64,000 bases of DNA from the IMG/VR virus record IMGVR_UViG_3300033997_000035, positions 64,001 to 128,000 of that record. The stretch is one strand, 5' to 3'. How positions within the stretch are numbered: position 1 is the first letter of the stretch; every line of letters starts with the position of its first letter. Shown here piece by piece: positions 1,428 to 61,660 of this stretch. The notes under the pieces were generated by a model. That model was given only the letters and a program-made list of their open reading frames with translations. It had not been told where the DNA came from and searched no databases. This stretch comes from a virus. A program made the translations under genes and the position numbers.

Positions 1428-2636
1428 TTGAAATATTTAAAAGGTATGTGTTTTGAGATAAAAGGTTCTACTATAAAGCTAGAAGAGAAATTGACGGGCA
1501 GGGACTGGATAGTTACCTGTTCAAAGTGTTCTGAGGATTCGGAGTTATGGTCTTATGGTTCGATGGTGATTAAGATAGGAAGTCTTACAGGAGGTAGTCT
1601 TCCTTGCTCCTGCTCCAATAGTGCCAAATATACTGAAAATCAAAACATAATCAGGGTAAAAAGAGAGTGTAAAAATAGGGGTTATATTTTCACTAGGTGG
1701 GATGGTGAATATAAAAACCTCTCTAAAACAGGTTTCATAGCTTACGATACTTTGGTCGGTAAAGAGGTGATCATTAGGTCGGCAACTAAATTCCTCGCAG
1801 GAGAGGATAGTAATGAAAGAACATCTAATAAGATCAGGAAAAGTAAACTCAAGGATGACAGTTATTACACGGAACTTTTCAACAGTAATGGATGCTTCGC
1901 GAAAGGTACTATATTCAAAAGATGTGAAGACGTAGTAGGCGGAAGTGGGAGATTTGATAGGTGGGTATACTGGTGCCCTACTTGCGCTAATGATGATATA
2001 GCACTCTCTGAATTTGGTTGTAGTGGTTGGTTTCCTTCTAATTATAATAGTCTTAAAAGTGGCATGAGGTCTTGTAGGTGTACCAAACAATACCGCTATT
2101 CCGTAGAGGAGAACGAAGTTAGGCTTAAAAACTTAATTGAAAAGGAGGGGTGCTTTTGGGGAGGATGGGGAACAAACCAAGAAGGTATTGGCAATCCTTC
2201 TAAGAAGTTCAAATGGTATTGTAATAAAGGTCATGAAAATTCTACAAGTGTTAATAATTTCCTTAAGGGTAGAAGATGCTCGTTTCCTGAGTGTAGATAT
2301 AAAAACTCAGCAGTCTGTAATAATTACGGTTTTTACGAAGGTAGAGAATTAGATCTAGACTATCTTTATGTCATAAAGATGTATAACGAAAATGAGAGCT
2401 TCATAAAGATTGGTAGAAGTTTTTCACCAACTAGAAGGTTCCAAGTTCTTAGAAAGAAATATGAGATCGAAGAATTACATCTGGAATTTGGTATGCATAA
2501 AGATATATGGCTGAAAGAATCAATGTTACATGAGAAATATGCAGTATATCACTACACACCACTAATATCATTTAAAGGAGGCGTGTTTGAGTGTTTCACC
2601 AAGGAAGTGTTGACACACCTAAGCAAAGAATTCTAA
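1428..2636 (+). CDS. GIY-YIG homing-type endonuclease with N-terminal cysteine modules
   Basis: TTG start behind AAAGGAAT. The 402-residue protein has repeated CxxC/CxC modules (CSKCSED, CSCSNSAKY, CPTCANDD, CRCTKQY) and a C-terminal GIY-YIG/T5orf172-like domain (LYVIKMY then IKIGRSFSPTRRF, later ESMLHEKY with the metal-binding glutamate position). Such genes are free-standing homing nucleases: the cysteine modules probably bind DNA and the C-terminus cuts. It sits between the polymerase-like gene and a methyltransferase. A related cysteine-rich architecture recurs in the genes at 23722-24939 and 60686-61660. Confidence 0.75.
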   Translation: MKYLKGMCFEIKGSTIKLEEKLTGRDWIVTCSKCSEDSELWSYGSMVIKIGSLTGGSLPCSCSNSAKYTENQNIIRVKRECKNRGYIFTRWDGEYKNLSKTGFIAYDTLVGKEVIIRSATKFLAGEDSNERTSNKIRKSKLKDDSYYTELFNSNGCFAKGTIFKRCEDVVGGSGRFDRWVYWCPTCANDDIALSEFGCSGWFPSNYNSLKSGMRSCRCTKQYRYSVEENEVRLKNLIEKEGCFWGGWGTNQEGIGNPSKKFKWYCNKGHENSTSVNNFLKGRRCSFPECRYKNSAVCNNYGFYEGRELDLDYLYVIKMYNENESFIKIGRSFSPTRRFQVLRKKYEIEELHLEFGMHKDIWLKESMLHEKYAVYHYTPLISFKGGVFECFTKEVLTHLSKEF

Positions 2637-3969: not shown

Positions 3970-4407
3970 ATGAAACTACATTGTGCAAAGTGTAACAAGC
4001 AACTCACACATGACTTGTATAAAGTGTCAGTGAGCCGATTAAATGGTGTTGTGCTTAATATTAATGATATTTGGCACAAAGATACTGGGTGTGATTATCC
4101 CAGAAGTGATATTAAATCTGGGCTATTCTATGAAACACGGAATCGTCCTAAAGAGAATAACAAGTGGCACGATGATAAACCAGCACAAATCATCCGTAAG
4201 ATTAAGAGTGAATTTGTAGTAGCTGAAGCTAGTATGTGTGATGGTGTGATCCCTCTGTTCAAATCAGGATATGGCTGCTGTAATTATAGTATGGGAGAAC
4301 CATTGATGTGCGAGTGTGGTAATCACGTAGGTAGTATGTATCTAGATTGCTACGAAGATAAGAGTGTGCACTTGATTAAAGATAGCGTAGTTCGGGTTTA
4401 TAAATAA
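3970..4407 (+). CDS. Hypothetical protein with CxxC motifs
   Basis: 145 residues behind AAAGGAG. The N-terminal CAKC and a C-terminal CECGNHVGSMYLDC could bind zinc. No catalytic motif recognised. Flanked by small membrane protein genes. Confidence 0.7.
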   Translation: MKLHCAKCNKQLTHDLYKVSVSRLNGVVLNINDIWHKDTGCDYPRSDIKSGLFYETRNRPKENNKWHDDKPAQIIRKIKSEFVVAEASMCDGVIPLFKSGYGCCNYSMGEPLMCECGNHVGSMYLDCYEDKSVHLIKDSVVRVYK

Positions 4408-4417
4408 GGAGAAACAT

Positions 4418-4588
4418 ATGTTAGTATTATTAACAATTGGTATTGGGGTGTGTTCGCTGTTGCAGGGTTATGTTGGAAATGATATAGCAGGGAACATACT
4501 TCTGGCGTTTATGTGGTTACCACTCATTGCAGGTAGTGCTATTGATTACTACTTCAAATGTAAATCTGAATATGATAGCAAGAAGTAA
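4418..4588 (+). CDS. Small membrane protein
   Basis: 56 residues behind AAGGAG. Two hydrophobic stretches (MLVLLTIGIGVCSLL and GNILLAFMWLPLIAG) and a basic C-terminus (YDSKK). Function unknown. Confidence 0.6.
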   Translation: MLVLLTIGIGVCSLLQGYVGNDIAGNILLAFMWLPLIAGSAIDYYFKCKSEYDSKK

Positions 4589-15299: not shown

Positions 15300-15629
15300 C
15301 GTTATGTTTTAATGGCTCGCTATACCATTATGCTTATTAGCACTCTGTGTTACCACAGAAGACCAGACTATATCTTAGCAATAAATGCTTTCACTTTTTC
15401 GAGGTGGGCTACCACCCCTACATTCTTACGAATTAGTCGTTGGAGATAAATCTAAAACCACGAGGTGTATCAAATTTTGTTCATGTGGATTTACTTTTAG
15501 ATCTTTTCCTGCTGATTAACTAAACTCTGCAATTTTTACAGGTCGTTACACATCACTGTGTAATATTGTATGAAGAGTGTAAAGTTTTTCCAGCAATTAA
15601 ATGAATTTTACGGAGGCTATGTAACCATG
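15300..15629 (-). other. Group I self-splicing intron in the portal gene
   Basis: 330 nt. On the minus strand I see P-like UUAAUUGCUGGAAA, Q-like AAUCAGCAGGAAA, R-like CAACGACUA and S AAGAUAUAGUCUGG, in this order; GACUA/UAGUC form P7 and GCUG/CAGC form P4. The 5' exon ends GGUGGU, which pairs with GCCUCC in the intron (P1, with a U.G at the splice site and one mismatch), and the intron ends in G. No ORF inside. Splicing restores IDGG-GKNFDT. Confidence 0.88.
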
Positions 15630-16598
15630 ACCACCATCGATTCCAAGGAATTTTAGCTCAAAACTACGCATACCATTACCAGACTCACTTTGTGTGTCAG
15701 AAGGTAATATTGTATAGTTCTGGTCACCTGTGTGCATATTAGCCATGTTAATTTTAAGCTGCTCAACCATAATCCCTTCTGGGCTAGTTGGGTCAGTGGC
15801 GGCACGATCTAATATGTCAGAAGGTAGATATAATATCGGTGTTCCTGAGAAGTCTTTCGTTACACCAATAAGTGTATATTCTTGGAGTAATGTTTTCTCT
15901 CGCCAAGCAGTATAACAAGTATCAAACGCTGAAACACCAAATGGTTGAGCATCCGTCCCATTGTAAGTAACCAGTGTGAGTTTGTTACGAGGAATACCTA
16001 CATAACCTAATCCACTGTTAATCACTTCAATTGGTAGGACATCCGTAGTATTCCTGAAAGCGTTTATACTCTGTCGCATCTCAAGAATATCACGGCCACC
16101 GTTAGTCACTGTAAATGGCGTGGTTGGTTGCAACGATAGTGGGTGAACATAGAGTAACTTATCTAATGTCCAATAATCTTCCCATTTACCTGCCCCTTTA
16201 CGAAATGTCTTCTCAAATGGTGCTAATCCATCTCGTTTGAATTCAGCAGCACATCTAGCAAAGCTACGAAGTGTTTGACCCCGCATGTTTTCATAACAGT
16301 AACGTAAGAACTCTGCGGCTTGTTTAGAATCTTCTGAGTAGGTATTATAACCTATCTCGTAATTAGCAAACGCTTTCTCGACTAAAATACAGTTGGCTGC
16401 GAAAGCATTTCCAACAGCATCATCAAGTAACATTTGCTGATATGTTCTAAACCTTTGGGTTTGAGATAATTCATATGGTTTGAGGATATTAACTATCGTG
16501 CGAATTGTTTCTATTGCAGGGGTAGCCAAACTCTTTTTAGATTGTCGGCTTTCCCTCGTTGAATTAGATGGTTTGGCCTTAGTAGGCGGTCTAGCCAT
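15630..16598 (-). CDS. Portal protein, exon 1 (N-terminal part)
   Basis: 323 codons from the ATG at 16598 (AAGGGAGACATTGAC before it), which is better placed than the upstream in-frame TTG at 16655. Residues include RFRTYQQMLLDDAVGNAFAANCIL, GLAPFEKTFRKG and GVSAFDTCYTAWREK, typical of the DUF935-type/lambda-like portals that form the dodecameric DNA channel of the head. The final splice-junction codons are GAT GGT GGT. Confidence 0.88.
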
Positions 16599-16626
16599 GT
16601 CAATGTCTCCCTTGTGATATAAGGGA

Positions 16627-16640
16627 ATTATAACACTTTT
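16627..16640 (-). promoter_or_regulatory. Extended -10 promoter candidate for the portal unit
   Basis: Minus strand TGTTATAAT, an exact TGnTATAAT element, about 30 bases before the portal start. A TTGACA lies only 13 bases upstream, too close for a standard -35. Confidence 0.4.
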
Positions 16641-16672
16641 GTAAATGTCAAGCAAATTGAGGAATTATGGGC

Positions 16673-23636: not shown

Positions 23637-23732
23637 ACCCCCATAAAATACAAGTGGTACATCGTCCCACAAGTTTACAAATTGGCATTGCGGCCCCGCT
23701 TGGGGTCGCAATACAAATGGTTCATCTGACAT
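23637..23732 (-). CDS. terL: Terminase large subunit, exon 1
   Basis: 32 codons from ATG at 23732 to the GGG GGT before the intron: MSDEPFVLRPQAG, then QFVNLWDDVPLVFYGG. This is the usual short N-terminus of phage TerL before the P-loop. The start overlaps the last 11 bases of the GIY-YIG gene and lacks a strong ribosome site of its own, so coupling to that gene is possible. Confidence 0.85.
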
Positions 23733-24939
23733 AGTTGTCTATCTCTAGTATTATATCGTTTATCTCTGCACTACTTAATATAAAGCACTCAGTATGTCCT
23801 GCCCACGAACTTTTTAAATCAATGTGATTACAATACGAGTATTTCTTGTGGAGGTAGTGCTCTAGGTTGAAACTGTCGTAAAGATTATAAGCTTTGTAGT
23901 GGATAACTTCTACAGGACATTTGGTGACTCTTTTGATATCGGCCACCCTTTGGTCTAGTACACCACTTATACCTATCTTAAAAAGCGAATCCCTCATTTG
24001 TAAAAGATACACACCAGATGGAATTTGCAGATAGGCACCCTTATTTTCCTCAACCCTGCTCCTGTGAAAACTTACATACCTAAGTCTCAACCTTTTACAC
24101 TCGGGGCAACCTTTAGCCTTATTTACATGATTATCTGGAGATTGCCAGAAATGAAAAGGTTCTTCGTGTTCATGGCATACAATATGAACCTTTTCTCTGG
24201 CTTTGGTGTAGACTACATTAGAGTAGTCATACTTATATGAGTGCACATCATTGGCTTGCTTTAAAAACCAGTCTGTATCCTTTAGTAGTCTTTTTGATGT
24301 CCTCATACCAGCACAGTTATTACAGCCCTTCCCTCTTACCAGATTACCATATAACATATCCACATAGTGGCTACACACAGAACAGGTAACACCTATCCTG
24401 TAATCCCTCTTTGTCTGGTAGCTAATGGGAAAAACAGGGTTAATCCAAGTCGTATGCTTTATCTTCTCTATAACATCGGTCTTGACTTCACCCTCATCCA
24501 TTTGGTAGCGGTTACTACACTTGCAAAATTTTCTCCCCTGAGTCAAAACTTCGAAAGGGTTACAGGTAAGCTTCTCAATTCCGCATATTTTACAAGCAAA
24601 CCCCCAGTTGCGAGATTTATTATAATCAGTTCCTATACTTGTTAAAGTTATTGTTGCGGCGTCATTCAATAACCTTAACGACCTGAACACCCCTTGTAGA
24701 TTCCCTTTACATGTAGCATAACATCCACAGGATGTTGTAACACCACGTATTACTTGAGTTAGTGTGGCCTTACAATGTTTACCACACAGGCATCTAAAAG
24801 CCCATTGGCCTACACCCTGAACTTTAAATAGAGGGGTTAATCTGTTATAAGATTTTTCAGTAGGTAAAGGTTCCCTGTTACTATACTTATCAATCCGTAT
24901 TGAATCTAAATATTCCAAACTAACACTATTATCTTTCAT
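23722..24939 (-). CDS. GIY-YIG homing-type endonuclease overlapping TerL start
   Basis: 405 residues behind GAGGTGATTA. Cysteine modules: CLCGKHCKA, CGCYATCKG, CKICGIEKL, CSVCSHYVD, CPECKRLRL. The C-terminal GIY-YIG/MUG113-like domain reads GVYLLQMRDSLFKIGISG with FNLEHYLHKKY as the catalytic glutamate region. It ends inside the TerL start codon region. Being next to the intron yet outside it, it may drive homing of the terminase intron (collaborative homing), which is an inference. Confidence 0.8.
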   Translation of the reverse strand: MKDNSVSLEYLDSIRIDKYSNREPLPTEKSYNRLTPLFKVQGVGQWAFRCLCGKHCKATLTQVIRGVTTSCGCYATCKGNLQGVFRSLRLLNDAATITLTSIGTDYNKSRNWGFACKICGIEKLTCNPFEVLTQGRKFCKCSNRYQMDEGEVKTDVIEKIKHTTWINPVFPISYQTKRDYRIGVTCSVCSHYVDMLYGNLVRGKGCNNCAGMRTSKRLLKDTDWFLKQANDVHSYKYDYSNVVYTKAREKVHIVCHEHEEPFHFWQSPDNHVNKAKGCPECKRLRLRYVSFHRSRVEENKGAYLQIPSGVYLLQMRDSLFKIGISGVLDQRVADIKRVTKCPVEVIHYKAYNLYDSFNLEHYLHKKYSYCNHIDLKSSWAGHTECFILSSAEINDIILEIDNYVR

Positions 24940-25785: not shown

Positions 25786-26205
25786 TTACTCAAATTCTAC
25801 ACTTCCACACACTGTAGCCGTTCCCTCCTCCACCTCTGTCAGCCCCATATCACGCTGCACATAATCTGCTGATTCACAATATGATTCGAACTTAGTGTGG
25901 CTAGCTTCTAGCACAATAATCTTACTAGGCACATTACCTTGTTTCAACGTCAAATGTGCCACAACATGACCCACTTGTGCAGCGAGTTTACCTTCTGACA
26001 TACGTAAAGTCTTGTCGTAGTGGAGTTTGAATACTGGAACTACTTGATGTTCGTGCAGACCATGTTCTTGGTCTAATCTAGCTAGTTCCTCCAACCAATT
26101 CTTACTAACATATTTAACTCCCATGTGCAAGTCTGCTTCGTGTTGGCCAGAAATAGTATTCACCTCATCAATCTGCTTCTGAACCCAATTATCTGGATGT
26201 GTCAT
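25786..26205 (-). CDS. PTH2-like peptidyl-tRNA hydrolase family protein
   Basis: 139 residues from ATG at 26205 (GGAGGAGAAATAAT). The second half matches the PTH2 core: DKTLRMSEGKLAAQVGHVVAH, then IIVLEASHTKFE and GLTEVEEGTATVCG. PTH2 enzymes release peptides or aminoacyl-like adducts from tRNA. The first 50 residues are phage-specific. It may rescue stalled tRNAs, in keeping with other tRNA-related genes in this phage. Confidence 0.8.
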   Translation of the reverse strand: MTHPDNWVQKQIDEVNTISGQHEADLHMGVKYVSKNWLEELARLDQEHGLHEHQVVPVFKLHYDKTLRMSEGKLAAQVGHVVAHLTLKQGNVPSKIIVLEASHTKFESYCESADYVQRDMGLTEVEEGTATVCGSVEFE

Positions 26206-26206
26206 A

Positions 26207-26419
26207 TTATTTCTCCTCCAAATGTTGCACATATACCCAACCATTTTCATCCCGTTTACTTATCACTGTCCCTTGCAACTCTAGGCAACGTTTTGTCACC
26301 TTGAATCCTTGCATTGATAATAAGTAATTAATCTCGCGCCCCATCCATCTCGGATCGAAGTCCTCTTGCGACATAATGTTATCTATGTCTGATAATGTTA
26401 TATATCCAATGTTTGGCAT
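26207..26419 (-). CDS. Hypothetical protein
   Basis: 70 residues; ATG at 26419 follows GGGAGGATTT. Contains a helix rich in methionine and aspartate at the N-terminus (LSDIDNIMSQEDFDPRWMG). It overlaps the upstream gene. Function unknown. Confidence 0.6.
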   Translation of the reverse strand: MPNIGYITLSDIDNIMSQEDFDPRWMGREINYLLSMQGFKVTKRCLELQGTVISKRDENGWVYVQHLEEK

Positions 26420-27466: not shown

Positions 27467-27817
27467 TTATCCCACTTTTGAAGGTGGTGGCACTAAGCTG
27501 ATCAGGGGTGAATGCCCTTTCTCTGCTGTGACAGCAGCCAATACACCTTGTGCCTCAGCTTCCTCTTTTAGTTCAGCAGCAAGGTCTTCGGCTTCAGCAG
27601 CTTTTAACTTGTGATAGAGGTCAATAGTTTGTGCTGCCGCACGGAGGACACTGTTGTCTGCTGCATTATCGTCGTTTAAAATATCCTCCATTCTCTTCAA
27701 TGATAGTTCCACAAGTTTAGGGACTCTCACCTTCATTGTGTTAGATACCCCTTTCCAACTTCTCTCAGCCACTTGGTCTGTCGTAGGACGACCACCCTTA
27801 CTCTTTTCTTCATTCAT
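27467..27817 (-). CDS. terS: Putative terminase small subunit
   Basis: 116 residues. KSKGGRPTTDQVAERSWK, a helical middle (LVELSLKRMEDILNDD), NSVLRAAAQTIDLYHKLKA and an alanine/glutamate coiled coil fit small terminase DNA-binding/oligomerisation domains. It is the nearest upstream candidate to TerL, though 3.7 kb and a terminator lie between. Start chosen at 27817 behind TAGGTG; 27823 is possible. Confidence 0.5.
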   Translation of the reverse strand: MNEEKSKGGRPTTDQVAERSWKGVSNTMKVRVPKLVELSLKRMEDILNDDNAADNSVLRAAAQTIDLYHKLKAAEAEDLAAELKEEAEAQGVLAAVTAEKGHSPLISLVPPPSKVG

Positions 27818-27995
27818 ATTCATCACCTAATAATTCTTTGTTATATTCATCTAAGTTAATTTTAATAATTTCTTCACCTGTTAACGGGATTTCAAATGTT
27901 TCAAACCCACGACAGCTATCACACATATCATCTTCACGGTTGTAGGTGAGTTTGGTGTATCGAGGAGTGAAGAAATTTCCACATTGGCATTGCAT
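27810..27995 (-). CDS. Small zinc-ribbon protein
   Basis: 61 residues behind AAGGATATG. MQCQCGNFF at the N-terminus and DMCDSCRGF form a CxC/CxxC zinc ribbon. It is first gene after the promoter at 28084-28112 and overlaps the TerS candidate. Confidence 0.65.
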   Translation of the reverse strand: MQCQCGNFFTPRYTKLTYNREDDMCDSCRGFETFEIPLTGEEIIKINLDEYNKELLGDEYE

Positions 27996-28083: not shown

Positions 28084-28112
28084 ATGATACCATGTAGAAG
28101 AATAGTGGTCAA
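28084..28112 (-). promoter_or_regulatory. Sigma70-like promoter for the TerS unit
   Basis: Minus strand TTGACC (28112-28107), 17 bases, TATCAT (28089-28084). It lies directly after the terminator of the large RNA. Confidence 0.75.
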
Positions 28113-28123
28113 ATTTCAGGTAT

Positions 28124-28146
28124 GAAAAACCCCTCGTGTGAGGGGC
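28124..28146 (-). terminator. Rho-independent terminator ending the large RNA
   Basis: Minus strand CCCCTC (28135-28130 arm) ACAC GAGGGG with TTTTTCAT downstream. The T run is only on the minus strand, fixing the direction. Confidence 0.88.
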
Positions 28147-29040
28147 ACTTGTGCTCGCTAATAGGTATCAATACTGTTTCCAGCGGAAGAAGCCTACGCT
28201 ATTATTGCAGTATGCTCTTTATGCATGTGCATAATCATGCCCTCTAAACCGTTTTATACTAGGCTGAAGTTGTCCTAGTGTTTCGAGGCGTCCCTCTAGG
28301 CTATCACAGTGCCTTACTTCTGGCCTCTAAAGAGGTCTGCGGGATTTCTCCCAAGCCCTTGCTAATTTATACACCTAGCGGAAAAGTGTTTTGCGTTCTT
28401 TTCGGGAATACCTCAACTAAATATGTTGAGTGATCCGAACGTGCTCACCTACGTTTCCGTACCGATAAAGTGCTTTACGCTAAGACTACCTTAAGCTATC
28501 GGCAAGCATACAGTAGAATGGCACAACAGACCCCAGAATTAAAACCACTTCCAGCATTGCGCTTGGCCTTATCACAGGCGGGGACTCCAACCAATTTTCA
28601 TTGAGACGGGTCAGGAGTATCGTCATGAGTTTAAACACATCTGAGGTGTTGTGGTAGTGTATGACATTTCAGACCTGATTGTCTTGGTGTGATTGACACT
28701 ACCAACCTCATGAGTTTTACATCTTCTGAGGATGACGTGTCGATACAATCAACATATTCTTTTAATATATTTAAATTTAGTATTAAAATAAACATATCAG
28801 AATAAGTAACCACCTTAACGTAGTGGTTGTGCATAGTCGTAAACTAACAGGACGATAACTGGTTTCTCTTTTTATAAGGTGTTCACCGTAGGGGTTATAC
28901 CCATCAATCACCTCTTGCACACGCATCTCAACGTGCCGACCTTTTTACAAGTTACTGACTCTTGTTACCAATGGCAGGACTGCTCCACTACTCCAAATTA
29001 CTGATACCATAGTGATAAGAAGGCTAAGTTCTTTCTTGTA
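28124..29040 (-). ncRNA. Large structured noncoding RNA candidate (GOLLD/ROOL-like in size and setting)
   Basis: About 900 nt without a credible gene. On the minus strand I can pair many helices: GGTAGTGT with ACACTACC inside GAGGT/ACCTC (28640-28720), CTCAAC/GTTGAG (28412-28431), CCTC/GAGG (28323-28334), and three hairpins capped by GAAA: TACG-GAAA-CGTA (28450-28461), GGGA-GAAA-TCCC (28341-28352), CTG-GAAA-CAG (28174-28183). It ends at a terminator and shares a promoter with tRNA-Gly. The 5' boundary is uncertain (may reach 29040 or be processed). Large ornate RNAs near phage tRNAs are known (GOLLD, ROOL); homology to them was not tested. The predicted AT-rich 67-codon ORF inside (28631-28834) is likely chance. 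Confidence 0.7.
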
Positions 29041-29059
29041 TATGTAAAACCTGAACACT

Positions 29060-29254
29060 CTATTTTGGTAAATCTTTTATGCCTAAGATTTTACGGGCGT
29101 TTGTTTCATCACCAACATTTAAATTGAACGCAGCCATTGACAATTTAGTCATCATCACACTCACTGTTTCAGCACAATTGTAGTTGGAACAGTTTAATCG
29201 TTGCAGTGCCTTAGATAACTCATCAATTACTGGCAACAAATCTTCATTTTTCAT
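29060..29254 (-). CDS. Hypothetical small helical protein inside the RNA unit
   Basis: 64 residues behind AAGGAAATTAT. Helical (LLPVIDELSKALQRLNCSN, then MMTKLSMAAFNL). It is the only convincing ORF between the tRNA and the large RNA, so it may be co-transcribed and could bind that RNA. Function unknown. Confidence 0.65.
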   Translation of the reverse strand: MKNEDLLPVIDELSKALQRLNCSNYNCAETVSVMMTKLSMAAFNLNVGDETNARKILGIKDLPK

Positions 29255-29341
29255 ATAATTTCCTTACCCTGCACATGAGGGATTAAGTAGTTTAAGGTAA
29301 TAACATGTTTACAGACGCTTCATCTTCCTACAAGAGACTGA

Positions 29342-29366
29342 TGCTTAAACGGCCTGCACGTTTAAG
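29342..29366 (-). other. Perfect stem-loop
   Basis: Minus strand CTTAAACG-TGCAGGC-CGTTTAAG, 8 perfect base pairs, no T run, so not a terminator. It lies between the tRNA-like hairpin and the 64-residue ORF; processing or folding element possible. Confidence 0.5.
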
Positions 29367-29450
29367 TAGGTAATGTGTTGGCTGCTAGTTGGTGTAGTTG
29401 CCAATCACTACACGTCCAAAGGTGCCTAAGCAATCTAAGAAACTAACTTT

Positions 29451-29536
29451 ACACATTATGGAAGTGTCTATGCAGTCTCGAATTGCTTGCTGGCTGAGCT
29501 ACCATCTACATGCCAGTAAACACTTTCATAATGTGT
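29451..29536 (-). ncRNA. tRNA-like structure with long closing helix
   Basis: Ends ACACATTATG (29451-29460) and CATAATGTGT (29527-29536) are perfect inverses, and pairing continues inward through GAAGTGT/ACACTTT with one G.U: about 17 pairs. Inside, the minus strand reads GGTAGCTCAG (D-arm-like) and TTCGAGACTGCA (T-arm-like) but has no proper anticodon arm. It could be a decayed tRNA or a folded domain of the downstream large RNA. Confidence 0.5.
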
Positions 29537-29614
29537 CCCATACTATCGCAGTGGGTGCGGGTAACGTTTACGTGGAACCGATTCGGCACAGTCTCCAAGC
29601 TGGCTTAGGAGATT

Positions 29615-29690
29615 TGGAGCAACATATCAGTTTCGAACTGATGACCTTCTGGTTGGAAGCCAGACGCTCTACCTACTGAGCTAATGTTGC
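29615..29690 (-). tRNA. tRNA-Gly, anticodon TCC
   Basis: 76 nt cloverleaf: acceptor GCAACAT/ATGTTGC, D-arm GCTCAGTAGGTAGAGC, anticodon stem TCTGG/CCAGA with loop CTTCCAA, T-arm ATCAG-TTCGAAA-CTGAT, discriminator T and encoded CCA. It reads GGA/GGG-type glycine codons. It is the only clear tRNA in the window and is first in its transcript. Confidence 0.95.
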
Positions 29691-29728
29691 GTATACCTTA
29701 AGCTACAGTGCCTTGTTTACATACACAT

Positions 29729-29757
29729 ATGATACCAGCCGCAGGTAATTGTGTCAA
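29729..29757 (-). promoter_or_regulatory. Promoter of the tRNA / large RNA unit
   Basis: Minus strand TTGACA (29757-29752), 17 bases, TATCAT (29734-29729), about 40 bases upstream of tRNA-Gly. Confidence 0.78.
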
Positions 29758-33462: not shown

Positions 33463-34011
33463 TTATTTCTCCTTACGAATATTAGATAATCTTAACTTCC
33501 TTAAATGTTTAAGGTAGAATGTTTCCCAAGACACTGGTTTGTTTTCTGGGGAATATTCAACTAAACGTTCCTTAACCTTACAAGATTTTGCAAGTTGCAT
33601 ATTAAGTAAGCTATTTAACTTTGGTTTATATTTATCTATCAACATCATTTCTAGTTCTAACATATCTGAATTACTAGGAACTTGTTGGAAAAGGACACTA
33701 TCAAAATCTTTAGAAAGTTTATGTGTCTTTAGTCTGCTTTTTATGTTGGTTGAACTGCCTATATAGACAATAACACCTTTAGACACAAGTGCGTAGACCA
33801 TAAATCTACAAGGATTTATTTTATCAATCACTTGTAATAACTTACTAGATATTTTTCCTTTGTCTTTGTTATAAGTATCTAATAGATAGTCATAAAGATA
33901 TTGTTTGTCATAACCATCGTAGTAAATTAAAGCCTCTATATAATCATAAGCTACAGATACTTCGAAATCCTTTTTATAGAATAAGTCTGTTAAATTTTCT
34001 AAATTACTCAT
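33463..34011 (-). CDS. GIY-YIG endonuclease
   Basis: 182 residues. GIY-YIG core: VYALVSKGVIVYIGSSTNIKSR (split as VYALVSKG and VYIGSSTNIKSRL), HKLSKDFD, and the metal glutamate in LELEMMLIDKYKPKLN, followed by SLLNMQ. The N-terminal 70 residues are helical. No good ribosome site; its ATG overlaps the stop of the gene upstream, so translation is coupled. AT-rich relative to neighbours. Probably a mobile homing nuclease. Confidence 0.85.
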   Translation of the reverse strand: MSNLENLTDLFYKKDFEVSVAYDYIEALIYYDGYDKQYLYDYLLDTYNKDKGKISSKLLQVIDKINPCRFMVYALVSKGVIVYIGSSTNIKSRLKTHKLSKDFDSVLFQQVPSNSDMLELEMMLIDKYKPKLNSLLNMQLAKSCKVKERLVEYSPENKPVSWETFYLKHLRKLRLSNIRKEK

Positions 34012-55912: not shown

Positions 55913-57158
55913 TTGAGTATTATTAAAACAGTAGTAAAACGTGACGGTAGTGAACAAGAATTTTCGCCTGAGAAGTTAAATCGTTGGGCTGAGTATGCCA
56001 CTAAAACTGGCGGTAACTGGAGTGAAATCTCACTTGAGACATATAAGCGATTACCCGATAAAGTAAAGACATCTGATATCCACCAGACAATGATTAACGT
56101 TTGTTTGGATAAAGAACAAATTGAATATTCTCGGGTTGCTGCCCGTCTTGAACATGCACGTATCAGGAAAACTTTAGATTCATATGGTATCCGAGACTCT
56201 GGTAGCTTTAAGGATATCTACAACTTCATGTTAGAAAAGGGTGTTTGGAGTAAAGAGGCATTACCTCCATACAACCCTGAGTGGGAAGCGTGGTATAAGG
56301 AAATTTATAACAATAAGCTTGAATATTGGCAAATTAAACAGTGGTCAGATAAATACTCTCGTAAGTTAGACGGTAAGGTGATTGAGACGCCTCATATCGG
56401 TGCAATGGGTATTGGTCTAGGGTTTCATGGTGATACGGAAACAGCACGTAAGTTGGCTAGAGGTATCATTGAAGGTAAGATTAACCTGCCAACACCTGCA
56501 CTAAACGGTGTGCGAAATAATGACTTTAATACCATCAGTTGTTGTGTAATCACAGGTGGCGATAGTGTTGATAGCATTCTTACTGCAACACACCTAAGTG
56601 CTTTATTCACTAGCAAGAAAAGTGGTATCGGTGTGGAGTTGGATACACGTTCCAAAGGTGACCCAGTTAAAGGCGGGGCAGTTGATCACTTAGGTAAGCA
56701 CAGTCTGTATGCCTCTGTAGACACGGCAGTAAAATTATTTACACAGATTACACGTGGAGGAAGTGCTACGGTTACATTTAAGTGCATTGACCCAGAAGCT
56801 GAACAAATCTGCTTGTGGAAAACACAGCGTGTAGACGTAGAAACTCGTCTGGATAAGATTGACTACAGTATGGCTTACAATAACGCATTCTTGGAAGCTG
56901 TGGTTAAAGGCGATGACTGGTATCTGTTTAGTCTTAAGAATGCACCAGAAGCCCATGAGGCGTTCTATAAGCCACAAACGACACTAGCTGACTACAAGGA
57001 CATGGCTAATCGCTTACCTCACGTTGTAGTGAAGGCTAGGGACTTACTGAAGACATTTTTAATTGCACGTAACGAAACTGGGCGTGTATATTGTTTCAAC
57101 GTATCACGAGCTAATGAACATACCCCGTTCTCAGATAGAATTAGTTTATCAAATCTGT
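55913..57158 (+). CDS. nrdA: Class I ribonucleotide reductase alpha subunit, exon 1
   Basis: TTG start behind AAGGAGAATAGTAG. VVKRDGSEQEFSPEKLNRW is a short ATP-cone start, DFNTISCCVITGGDSVDSI holds the first redox cysteine, and SGIGVELDTRSKG follows. The exon ends in SDRISLSNL plus T, the first base of the catalytic cysteine codon. Without splicing translation stops at once at UAA. Full protein 730 residues. Confidence 0.95.
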
Positions 57159-57375
57159 AAATGGTGCAGCATTATGTGGCGACATGTAATGAAAACTATG
57201 TGAATTCTTGGGAAGCTATGTAGCTAATCAAGAGCCGTTAATTCGGTGTAGAGACTAACCTTATAGGTGTAGGGGTATTAGTATGCCTCGAAGCGCAAAG
57301 CAACCCAAGTGGTTGATGATATAGTCCGATAACGTAGGGAACTACGGAAGAAGTGTAGCGACTTCAAAACTAAAG
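57159..57375 (+). other. Group I self-splicing intron in nrdA
   Basis: 217 nt, no ORF. 5' exon CUGU pairs with intron GCAG (P1, U.G at the cut). R-like GGUGUAGAGACUAACC and S-like GAUGAUAUAGUCCG build P7; the intron ends in G. Joining T|GC restores SNL-C-QEICLPT, the conserved radical-cysteine motif. Confidence 0.93.
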
Positions 57376-58322
57376 GCCAAGAAATCTGCTTACCAACTAA
57401 AGCATACACAGGGATTAAGGACTTATACTCTGATAATAGTGTAGGTGAGACAGCATTCTGTGTGCTATCTGCAATCAATGTGCAGAACGTAGACAAGTCT
57501 GAATACGAAGATGTTGCAGAAACCGTATTACGCACAGTTGATGTGATGATCGACAAAGCTGTAATGCCAAGTAAGAGTTTGGAAGCTAAAATTAAAATGC
57601 GTAGGAGTGTTGGTGTGGGTATTACAGGGTTGGCTGGCTACCTATACAAACAGGGATTAGATTATGACGGTAGTGAGAAATCACTTGAAGTAGTGAGTGA
57701 ACTGGCTGAACGTCATTACTACTACTTACTCAAGGCATCACAGAAGATTGCAGCAGAAGAAGGGTATGAGATTGAAGGTGTGGATTTAAACTGGTTACCA
57801 GTAGATACACGTATCAACCAGCACCCCTTGAAGTTAGATTGGGAAGCTCTACGTGGCAAGCAACGTAAGCATAGTGTGTTAGTTGCACATATGCCCACTG
57901 CAAGCTCTGCTACATTCTCTAATGCAACGTCAGGGTTATACCCTCAACGCAATAAAGTGATTAACAATAAATCGCGTAAAGGCTTGGTGCAGTATATTTG
58001 TGAATGGTTTGATGATAGTAAATTTAAGTCTGCTTGGAAAGTTGACAACATCACCCTAAGTAAGTATTATTCTGTTATCCAAGACATGACTGACCAAGGT
58101 ATCAGCGCAGACTACTACTTTGACCCAAGTCAATATGCAGACGAGAAGAAACCGTTATCTGAGCTGATGAAAGAGTGGGTTGCTCAAGCTAAACTTGGTA
58201 ACAAGAGTATGTATTACATCAACACTCGTGACTATAACGGTGGTAGTTACCAAGATACACTTAAGTCCGCTGAAGTGGTGGAAGAAGTTGGTGGATGTGA
58301 CAGTGGTGGCTGTAAATTATAA
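57376..58322 (+). CDS. nrdA: Class I ribonucleotide reductase alpha subunit, exon 2
   Basis: Begins GC CAA GAA ATC TGC and supplies QEICLPTKAYTG, LCVLSAINVQN-like AFCVLSAINVQNVD, and the conserved MPTASSATFSNATSGLYP loop. The C-terminal tail GGCDSGGCKL carries the two redox-shuttle cysteines. With NrdB it makes dNDPs aerobically. Confidence 0.95.
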
Positions 58323-59508: not shown

Positions 59509-60093
59509 ATGTTACATAGAAAGTTTAATAAGGTTAACAATTATGTTATCCACCTAGAAGGTCATGTGCACCCTACGGCAATGGTCGGGACTTTAGTATA
59601 TGACGAAGACACCTCTCCACTGCTACAACCTTCGCCACGTTCGAAGAAAGTGTATGTTGCGGATTTGAAAGGTCACAAGAGTATCTCCCAATGGTTGACT
59701 GAAGGGAAAGTGTATGAGGCGAGAGGCTGTTGTCCTTTAGTAGTAGAAAATGATAGACTTATATATGTAGAGTGTGACACAGGAGAGATATTTTCCTTCA
59801 GTAAACACTGGTTCAAAGAAGTTTATCTTTACGACGAAGATGAAACGTTACTAACATGCCGTGATATTGAATTCAAGGAAGGTGACTACCTCGATTTACG
59901 TAAGCATACACCTGAGCAGATTCGGCATATTGGTGTATACTGGAAGTTCTTTGATATTGAAGATTTGTTGAATGGGGGATACTATCGCACTATTTATTGG
60001 GATGGTGATGAATTCGTTGGTGACAATTACCATGACACCGATGAAGCAAAAGAATACACTTACGACGATATCTTTTACTTAGAGGAATTTTAA
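59509..60093 (+). CDS. Hypothetical protein
   Basis: 194 residues behind AAAAGGATGGTTT. Beta-rich with acidic C-terminal third. Ends one base into the endolysin gene. Function unknown. Confidence 0.62.
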   Translation: MLHRKFNKVNNYVIHLEGHVHPTAMVGTLVYDEDTSPLLQPSPRSKKVYVADLKGHKSISQWLTEGKVYEARGCCPLVVENDRLIYVECDTGEIFSFSKHWFKEVYLYDEDETLLTCRDIEFKEGDYLDLRKHTPEQIRHIGVYWKFFDIEDLLNGGYYRTIYWDGDEFVGDNYHDTDEAKEYTYDDIFYLEEF

Positions 60094-60695
60094 TGTTTAA
60101 TAGTTATAATAACGCACCAGAATTTGTTCGCAAGTTTGTAGATACCACTATCGACCACGAAGGTGAGGAATACACTAATATCAAGGAAGATAGTGGTGGC
60201 AAGACAAAATTTGGTGTGACGGAGAAAGCTGCATTAGCTAAGAAGGAATTATGGCACTTATATAATTGGGATGGGAATATGCGAACTATGCCACTCCAAT
60301 TCGCACAGGATCTGTATGTAGATGAGTATTACCTTACACCGAAATTCAACTTAGTGGCAGAGGTGTCGCAGATGATAGCTCAGGAAATGTTTGATAGTTC
60401 TGTAAACATAGGGCCGCGAATGCCAAGTCTTTGGTTACAACAGTTACTGAATGTTCTCAACAACCAGCAAACCTTCTACAAGGATATTGCCGAAGATGGG
60501 AAGATTGGTAGTGGGACGTGTGCCGCATTGCGAGCATACTTAAGCAAACGTGGTAAGGAAGGTGAGAAGGTGCTGCACAATATGCTCAATGTTATGCAGG
60601 GGTATCATTATATTAGTCTGGCAATCAAGAAGGAGTCCCAAGAAAAATTTTTATACGGGTGGATTCAGAAGAGGGTAGGGTTTAAATGCAATTAG
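60093..60695 (+). CDS. Endolysin, glycoside hydrolase family 108-like
   Basis: 200 residues. The HEGEEYTNIKEDSGGKTKFGVTE segment (key Glu in HEGEE, split motif EDSGGKTKFG) is the GH108 N-acetylmuramidase signature; a C-terminal peptidoglycan-binding part (DGKIGSGTCAALRAYL) follows. No signal peptide. Likely the main lysis enzyme, released by a holin. Overlaps both neighbours. Confidence 0.88.
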   Translation: MFNSYNNAPEFVRKFVDTTIDHEGEEYTNIKEDSGGKTKFGVTEKAALAKKELWHLYNWDGNMRTMPLQFAQDLYVDEYYLTPKFNLVAEVSQMIAQEMFDSSVNIGPRMPSLWLQQLLNVLNNQQTFYKDIAEDGKIGSGTCAALRAYLSKRGKEGEKVLHNMLNVMQGYHYISLAIKKESQEKFLYGWIQKRVGFKCN

Positions 60696-61660
60696 ACATA
60701 AAGTATCCAGTAATGTTGACTAAGAAAGGAAGTATTATATCCGTAATAGATGAGTTTAATGTTGATGGTATAATATATCTTACAATAAGTTGTAGTATAT
60801 GCTCAAAAGATGTAGAACTACATAACGAACCTTTCATACAACCGAAGAATCATTGGAAAAGAGGTGTTATTCCTTGTAGTTGTTCTGCGCATCCTTACTA
60901 TGACGAAAGGCAAGCTACTGTAGTTGCAAAACGGAGATGTGATGCAAAAGGTAAGGTATTTCATGGATTCTCTTCTAGTTTTAATGGGATAAGTAGGACT
61001 AAAGTATTTGGTAGATGCTCAGTACATAAACTTGTAGAGTGGGATAATTTGTCTAATTACTTAAAGAGACCTAGTGAGTGTCCTATTTGCTCCAAGAGAA
61101 AACCTGTATTTGGTGTAGGTATCAATGATGCCGATTACGACGTAAGATATTGTCCGTATTATTCTACTTGGAGCGACATGCTTAGGAGATGCTATTATGA
61201 ACCTTATCAGAAAAAGTATCCAACATATGTGGGATGTAGTGTAGATGAAACTTGGAAAATATTTTCCAGATTCAAGTCTTGGATGGAAATTCAGGACTGG
61301 GAAGGAAAACAACTAGATAAGGATTTACTTGTCGGAGGAAACAAGGTATATAGTGAAAATACTTGCATATTTATAAATGGTGCAATAAATACACTACTGG
61401 CCGCAAGACCATCAAAGTCAGGTTTGTCTAGGGGAGTGTGTAGAAAAGAAGGTGGGAGGTACATGGCCACCTGCTCAGGTAAGCGACTTGGAGTATTTAA
61501 TAGTGAAATGGAAGCTCATTCTGCTTGGCAATGTGCTATTGTTGATAGAATCATGTGTTTATCAGAAGGACAAAGTGATGTAGTTACCAGTAGATTGGTA
61601 GACATTGCAAACAGAATAAAAGAAGATAATAAATTCCACAGGGTGACAACTAAAATATAA
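60686..61660 (+). CDS. HNH/AP2-type homing endonuclease-like protein with cysteine modules
   Basis: 324 residues. The N-terminus has CSICSKDVEL, CSCSAHPYYDER and CPICSKRKP modules like those of the GIY-YIG gene at 1428. The second half equals the family of the 4892 gene: WSDMLRRCYYEPY, YPTYVGCSVDETWKIFSRFKSW, LDKDLLVGGNKVYSENTC. A C-terminal AP2-like region follows. It overlaps the endolysin stop by 10 bases, which suggests insertion. Confidence 0.7.
   Translation: MQLDIKYPVMLTKKGSIISVIDEFNVDGIIYLTISCSICSKDVELHNEPFIQPKNHWKRGVIPCSCSAHPYYDERQATVVAKRRCDAKGKVFHGFSSSFNGISRTKVFGRCSVHKLVEWDNLSNYLKRPSECPICSKRKPVFGVGINDADYDVRYCPYYSTWSDMLRRCYYEPYQKKYPTYVGCSVDETWKIFSRFKSWMEIQDWEGKQLDKDLLVGGNKVYSENTCIFINGAINTLLAARPSKSGLSRGVCRKEGGRYMATCSGKRLGVFNSEMEAHSAWQCAIVDRIMCLSEGQSDVVTSRLVDIANRIKEDNKFHRVTTKI

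What the first reader, a model, noticed from the sequence alone, without database searches (positions are those of the whole stretch)
28124..29757. RNA-rich transcription unit: promoter, tRNA-Gly, tRNA-like hairpin, small ORF, about 900-nt structured RNA, terminator
Seen directly: a TTGACA-17-TATCAT promoter, a complete tRNA-Gly with CCA, then about 1.3 kb with only one credible ORF, rich in pairable helices and three GAAA-capped hairpins, ending in a strong terminator followed at once by a new promoter. Known: GOLLD and ROOL RNAs are large, highly structured and often near phage tRNAs. Inference: this may be one of these or a new class of ornate phage RNA.
Basis: partly seen in the sequence, partly recalled or inferred. 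Interest (0 to 1): 0.9.

Follow-up and report, generated by a model that had tools for sequence, protein, structure and literature searches.

The report
Modular phage noncoding RNA beside tRNA-Gly
This stretch of an ICP1-like virus genome makes a tRNA and then a roughly 900-nucleotide folded noncoding RNA, a relative of the unexplained RNA that is the most abundant transcript of the cholera phage ICP1; comparing about two dozen phages shows it is built of movable folded blocks, which makes its unknown job testable.

Summary
On the minus strand a near-consensus promoter (29757-29729) is followed by tRNA-Gly(UCC) with encoded CCA, a 64-aa orphan ORF, about 930 nt without a credible gene, and a terminator. 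The RNA matches no Rfam family: nothing but the tRNA scores at E<=10, and GOLLD and ROOL were also tested separately. It is not an orphan. The genome is ICP1-like (terminase 78% identical), and the locus is syntenic with the ~1-kb gap that encodes ICP1's most abundant transcript, a published lncRNA of unknown function. Relatives occur in about two dozen Vibrio, Shewanella, Enterovibrio and metagenomic phages. They share blocks of 30-170 nt that are duplicated, lost, split by ORFs and sometimes reordered. Four blocks present in the window (two pseudoknot types, two sets of hairpins) show compensatory base-pair changes beyond column shuffles; a fifth was not shuffled. tRNA-Gly(UCC) precedes the RNA in 12 members. 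Position relative to lysis genes is not conserved, which argues for action in trans. Best reading: a modular scaffold or decoy RNA made in large amounts; a GOLLD-like RNA-only assembly is the main rival. Folding energy was uninformative: a coding control scored better. New variant of a known but uncharacterised kind.

The parts
29729..29757 (-). sigma-70-type promoter TTGACA-17-TATCAT with extended -10
   Evidence: 11/12 match; same type of site at the start of the loci of Shewanella phages 1/4 and 1/40, 18-nt-spaced site in ICP1
29694..29714 (-). 21-nt remnant of the 5' half of a tRNA-Met
   Evidence: 100% identical to the start of the intact tRNA-Met of relative L029
29615..29690 (-). tRNA-Gly (anticodon UCC), CCA encoded
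   Evidence: ARAGORN, Rfam RF00005 71.8 bits
29060..29254 (-). 64-aa orphan ORF embedded in the transcription unit, 5' of the conserved RNA blocks
   Evidence: ORF list; no Pfam/PHROG/tblastn relative
28124..29057 (-). structured noncoding RNA, about 930 nt, family of the ICP1 lncRNA
   Evidence: blocks shared with about two dozen phages; no coding signal
28706..28734 (-). H-type pseudoknot block KL, copy a
   Evidence: alignment A7: 35/35 cells paired, 4 of 7 pairs with two-sided change
28623..28649 (-). H-type pseudoknot block KL, copy b
   Evidence: as copy a
28527..28620 (-). ACT block: closing stem ACUCC/GGAGU around a GAAA-capped hairpin, then a CCUGUGAUAAGG hairpin
   Evidence: found in 1/4, 1/40, KASIA, L056, L057; stem becomes AACCC/GGGUU in L056/L057
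28457..28519 (-). mid block: stem CCGAUA/UAUCGG with an inner hairpin
   Evidence: alignment A8: 5 of 9 pairs with two-sided change, 0/500 shuffles
28282..28334 (-). 3' block: hairpin CCUC/GAGG, then CAGAAGUAAGGCACUGUGA with two covarying hairpins
   Evidence: model R1 at 28282-28322; 4 of 8 pairs with two-sided change
28241..28279 (-). H-type pseudoknot block PK with conserved UAAAACGGUUU linker
   Evidence: same type in 1/4, L029, ICP1, 1.063, 1.121 with compensatory changes
28124..28146 (-). intrinsic terminator
   Evidence: 7-pair stem, 5 G-C, then T-run
28084..28112 (-). promoter of the next operon (TTGACC-17-TATCAT)
   Evidence: 10/12 match

Best explanation
A member of the ICP1-type phage lncRNA family. 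One strong host-type promoter drives tRNA-Gly, a small orphan ORF and a roughly 930-nt structured RNA, ended by an intrinsic terminator. The RNA is a chain of separately folding units (H-type pseudoknots, GNRA-capped hairpins, a conserved 3' double hairpin) that evolve by duplication, loss and reordering. Most likely it acts in trans as an abundant modular scaffold or decoy, each unit binding a host or phage factor (RNA-binding protein, nuclease or ribosome) through the infection. Shown here: family, unit structure by compensatory changes, modularity, lack of coding. Shown by others for ICP1: very high expression. Inferred: expression here, trans action, the binding partner. Family membership about 0.9; the scaffold/decoy mechanism about 0.35.
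For: Genome is ICP1-like: terminase 78% identical. Flanking genes are syntenic: an upstream gene resembles the ICP1 genes at gp141/142, downstream ones match gp131, gp130, gp129 and gp128. The window RNA matches ICP1's intergenic RNA over 53 nt at the 3' block, Shewanella phage 1/4 over several blocks and KASIA over 55 nt against the whole phage collection, and L057 over 163 nt at 78%. Compensatory changes in four blocks exceed column shuffles; the ACT block has three pairs with two-sided change. Modularity: KL twice here and in 1/4, mid twice in L056, 3' block and PK in opposite order here relative to 1/4, L006, L029 and ICP1, and two blocks of 133 and 166 nt swapped between L029 and 1/4. ICP1's RNA is its most abundant transcript (PMC7567579). 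Adjacency to lysis genes is not conserved: small non-lysis genes follow here and in 1/4, portal in KASIA, terminase in henriette and 3.058, and a new promoter follows the terminator.
Against: No binding partner is known. No transcript data exist for this phage. Covariation rests on 5-6 sequences per block, which are related to one another; the PK alignment was made by hand. Folding energy does not separate the RNA from coding DNA. The 5' 350 nt after the tRNA have no detected relatives and fold no better than shuffles.
Confidence: 0.5

Rival explanations
1. A GOLLD/ROOL-like RNA that assembles with copies of itself into an RNA-only cage or other homo-oligomer, perhaps holding tRNAs or other cargo. 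It would work like GOLLD without being homologous to it.
For: Similar size, phage origin, tRNAs upstream (tRNA-Gly in 12 members), very high expression in ICP1, pseudoknots and GNRA loops; GOLLD and ROOL themselves are unrelated in sequence yet both form cages (PMC12286853).
Against: No Rfam similarity. Units are swapped and lengths run from about 0.9 to 2 kb, which fits a fixed cage geometry poorly. Self-complementary kissing loops were not tested.
Confidence: 0.2
2. A cis-acting leader that controls the genes downstream (lysis or late genes), for example by regulated read-through of the terminator.
For: In ICP1 and several vibriophages the RNA lies directly upstream of lysis or membrane-protein genes (PMC9040626).
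Against: Downstream genes differ between members; a separate promoter follows the terminator here; a leader rarely needs to be the most abundant transcript.
Confidence: 0.1
3. A tRNA-operon remnant: debris of phage tRNAs, mobile endonuclease genes and small ORFs, with little function of its own.
For: tRNA-Met scar, variable tRNAs, ORF cassettes inserted at different points, orphan ORF.
Against: Compensatory base-pair changes in several blocks and conservation across phages that are only distantly related to one another.
Confidence: 0.07
4. The stretch encodes one or more small proteins.
For: 64-aa ORF with a ribosome-binding site at 29060-29254; stop-free runs up to 70 codons within the RNA.
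Against: No homologues; frames are not conserved between relatives.
Confidence: 0.03

Closest known systems
ICP1 lncRNA (Vibrio phage ICP1, gap between gp139 and gp140; Barth et al. 2020 PMC7567579, review PMC9040626)
   Same: Syntenic locus, similar size, promoter and terminator, shared PK pseudoknot and 3' block with compensatory changes
   Different: ICP1 has no tRNA; here tRNA-Gly and a 64-aa ORF share the transcription unit, the KL, ACT and mid blocks are present, the 3' block and PK are in the opposite order, and no lysis gene follows directly
Intergenic RNA loci of Shewanella sp. phages 1/4 and 1/40 (annotated only as tRNAs and small hypothetical ORFs)
   Same: tRNA-Gly(UCC) upstream, promoter, KL x2, ACT and PK blocks (mid and 3' block in 1/4 only), same downstream genes
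   Different: Longer (1.5-2 kb) with extra blocks and an additional tRNA-Arg; PK precedes the 3' block in 1/4
GOLLD (RF02032) and ROOL (RF03087) RNAs
   Same: Large, structured, phage-borne, often near tRNAs, abundant
   Different: No detectable sequence or covariance-model similarity; unit shuffling; oligomerisation untested

Membership tests
ICP1-type phage lncRNA | Located in the syntenic gap of an ICP1-like genome | tested here: met
   Upstream and downstream genes match the ICP1 gp141/142 and gp131-gp128 regions; terminase 78% identical
ICP1-type phage lncRNA | Shared sequence/structure blocks with the ICP1 RNA | tested here: met
   3' block BLAST to ICP1 over 53 nt; model R1, built from 6 members including this one, also finds 1.101, which it was not built from; PK pseudoknot
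ICP1-type phage lncRNA | Very abundant noncoding transcript of about 800 nt during infection | not testable with these tools
   Known for ICP1 only (PMC7567579)
ICP1-type phage lncRNA | Adjacent to lysis genes (described for ICP1 and 1.121) | tested here: not met
   Next genes are small proteins of unknown function (phrog_29406, phrog_28314); the GH108 endolysin gene lies at 60093. Relatives show the feature is not universal, so it is treated as non-defining
GOLLD (RF02032) | Covariance-model match | tested here: not met
   No match at E<=10, none in 9 records (no positive control rang)
GOLLD (RF02032) | Forms an RNA-only 14-mer cage | not testable with these tools
   Needs cryo-EM or mass photometry
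ROOL (RF03087) | Covariance-model match | tested here: not met
   no positive control rang
OLE and all other Rfam families | Covariance-model match | tested here: not met
   cmscan over 4227 families at E<=10: only the tRNA; seven relatives at E<=1 hold nothing convincing in the RNA either
Group I intron | Conserved catalytic core (RF00028) | tested here: not met
   RF00028 matches elsewhere in the window but not here

The most novel reading that the evidence does not exclude
A previously undefined class of large phage RNA that evolves like a mosaic protein: self-contained pseudoknot and hairpin domains are shuffled, duplicated and exchanged among Vibrio and Shewanella phages, and the assembled RNA is a dominant structural or decoy component of the infected cell, possibly an RNA-only particle.
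Probability: 0.3. Interest if true: 0.85.

Novelty: new variant of a known kind. Interest (0 to 1): 0.62.

Why it matters
The most abundant transcript of ICP1, the dominant cholera phage, has had no defined family, structure or function; the literature calls its sequence highly divergent between phages. The relatives found here give a first set of conserved, covarying units, show that the RNA does not depend on neighbouring lysis genes, and tie it to tRNA-Gly in 12 members. That gives concrete pieces to delete, swap, probe or use as bait. Domain shuffling of a large noncoding RNA is itself unusual.

Tried and rejected
Rfam at gathering and lax thresholds: nothing but tRNAs and introns elsewhere. 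Folding energy as evidence of structure: rejected because a coding control scores better. Pattern TAGTATAAAACGGTTT in IMG/VR: 19 hits, of which only L006, L018, L015 and L016 also match the window RNA elsewhere; the rest look like chance. Patterns for the vibriophage 3' module and for CCAAGTAAAATGGATTA in IMG/VR: chance hits besides ICP1. The 3' block pattern in 84,980 bacterial and archaeal genomes: none, so no sign of a prophage or host version with that exact block. Neighbouring protein 27470-27826 as bait in IMG/VR: none. A general scan for pseudoknots in the window RNA alone: candidates score like shuffles, so a pseudoknot counts here only where relatives support it. Vibrio phage 1.012 shares only a 57-nt piece near a tRNA on the other strand; left undecided.

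Full report
What is there. On the minus strand, an 11/12 sigma-70-type promoter (29757-29729) precedes tRNA-Gly(UCC) with an encoded CCA (29690-29615), a 64-aa ORF (29254-29060), about 930 nt without a credible gene, and an intrinsic terminator (28146-28124); another promoter-like site follows at once (28112-28084). The stop-free runs inside the 930 nt are short and their frames are not kept between relatives. The 64-aa ORF has no relative in Pfam, PHROGs or 50,697 phage records. A 21-nt piece just upstream of tRNA-Gly (29714-29694) is identical to the start of an intact tRNA-Met in relative L029, so a tRNA has been lost or recombined here.

What genome it is. The window is half of a 128,076-base virus record. 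Its terminase is 78% identical to that of Vibrio phage ICP1, and the order of genes around the RNA follows ICP1: an upstream gene resembles the ICP1 genes at gp141/142 and downstream ones match gp131 to gp128. In ICP1 the same position is an open gap of about 1 kb (80097-81107). Barth et al. 2020 (PMC7567579) report that this gap gives the most abundant ICP1 transcript, about 800 nt, noncoding, of unknown function, and compare it by size only with GOLLD and ROOL. The 2021 review (PMC9040626) adds that an lncRNA is a conserved feature of the lysis locus in some related phages although its sequence can be highly divergent.

Relatives. DNA searches first found Shewanella phages 1/4, 1/40 and KASIA. 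From there, ICP1, two dozen or so Vibrio and Enterovibrio phages (1.193, 1.121, 1.063, 1.084, 1.101, 1.170, henriette, eugene, 11895-B1, 424E50, PS17B-2, F98, K412, K406, 355E48, 3.058 and close kin) and metagenomic contigs (L006/L018, L029, L056, L057) were connected by shared blocks. Many of these are linked to the window only through intermediates. The strongest single link to the window is L057, 163 nt at 78% identity. E-values of the all-against-all comparisons apply to a small set of chosen loci; the first links (1/4 and KASIA) were significant against the whole phage collection.

Structure from covariation. Four blocks of the window show compensatory changes beyond column shuffles. (a) 3' block: 97.9% of cells paired, 4 of 8 pairs changed on both sides, 8 such cells against 2.2 in shuffles, 0/500; sliding the partner destroys it. 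(b) KL pseudoknot, two tandem copies here: 35 of 35 cells paired, 4 of 7 pairs with two-sided change; the pseudoknot itself switches from UCA/UGA here to UCU/AGA in the Shewanella phages. (c) mid block: 5 of 9 pairs. (d) PK pseudoknot: hand-made alignment, 56 of 57 cells paired, 10 of 1000 shuffles as good; ACCUC/GAGGU in ICP1 becomes ACCAC/GUGGU in 1.063. A fifth, the ACT block, changes its closing stem from ACUCC/GGAGU to AACCC/GGGUU in L056/L057. Each set has only 5-6 related sequences, and shuffles do not remove relatedness. By contrast, folding energy is no evidence: z = -3.05 for the RNA, -5.47 for a coding control, -2.23 for ICP1's RNA. GNRA-capped hairpins are more frequent than in shuffles (4 against 1.05).

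Modularity. The blocks are mostly in the same order but not always. Two blocks of 166 and 133 nt are exchanged between L029 and 1/4, each with a very low E-value. In the window the 3' block precedes PK; in 1/4, L006, L029 and ICP1 it follows. KL is doubled in the window and in 1/4, and mid is doubled in L056. In eugene 12A10 a 751-nt cassette with an ORF is inserted inside the RNA; in F98 a 664-nt cassette with an HNH gene and a related leader sits just after tRNA-Gly. tRNA-Gly(UCC) lies upstream in 12 loci, tRNA-Met or tRNA-Arg alone in three more; ICP1 has none.

How it probably works. Downstream genes differ: small unrelated proteins here and in 1/4, lysis or membrane proteins in ICP1 and vibriophages, portal in KASIA and L056, terminase in henriette and 3.058. 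With a promoter after the terminator, this argues for action in trans. Units that can be moved, doubled and lost suggest independent binding units on a scaffold or decoy rather than one rigid machine; that step is inference. A GOLLD-like RNA-only assembly remains possible, since GOLLD and ROOL are themselves unrelated in sequence (PMC12286853).

Classification. Not GOLLD, ROOL, OLE, a group I intron or any other Rfam family; the two separate GOLLD and ROOL searches rang in no control genome, so they are supporting evidence only. It is a member of the ICP1 lncRNA family in position, blocks and size, with differences (tRNA-Gly and ORF in the unit, added blocks, swapped order, no lysis neighbour). 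Hence a new variant of a known but undefined kind.

Noticed in passing
window 57138-57348 (+) and 15343-15671 (-): Two group I introns (Rfam), one splitting a ribonucleotide reductase large-subunit gene (55913-57160 and 57462-58322), the other at the end of the ORF at 15597-16655.
   Followed up: partly
window 1428-2636, 60686-61660, 23722-24939, 33463-34011: Several genes of homing-endonuclease type or context: two CapR-domain proteins, a T5orf172 protein related to ICP1 gp130, and a GIY-YIG protein.
   Followed up: partly
L035 3187-3946 (eugene 12A10), L037 173-836 (F98), also L041, L034, L052: A mobile cassette with an HNH or unnamed ORF and a conserved leader of about 60 nt inserted at different points of the tRNA-lncRNA locus; Rfam finds no intron in it.
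   Followed up: partly
L002 1906-2027 and L004 1267-1388: Shewanella phages 1/4 and 1/40 carry a 122-nt tRNA-like gene with an ATGCTAAC/GTTAGCAT acceptor stem, annotated as pseudo tRNA, 5' of tRNA-Gly.
   Followed up: no
window 25786-26250 (-): Peptidyl-tRNA hydrolase-like protein (PTH2, below the Pfam cut-off) a few genes downstream of the tRNA-RNA unit; 1/4 has an annotated peptidyl-tRNA hydrolase in the same neighbourhood.
   Followed up: no
window 29413-29376 (-): A 7+5 base-pair pseudoknot candidate (GUGUAGU..ACUACAC with UUGGC/GCCAA) in the 5' part that has no relatives; it scores just above ten shuffles.
   Followed up: no
ICP1 gp135-gp136 gap, L028 about 4208-4540: ICP1's second reported noncoding transcript (about 300 nt, PMC7567579) was not compared with the present family.
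   Followed up: no
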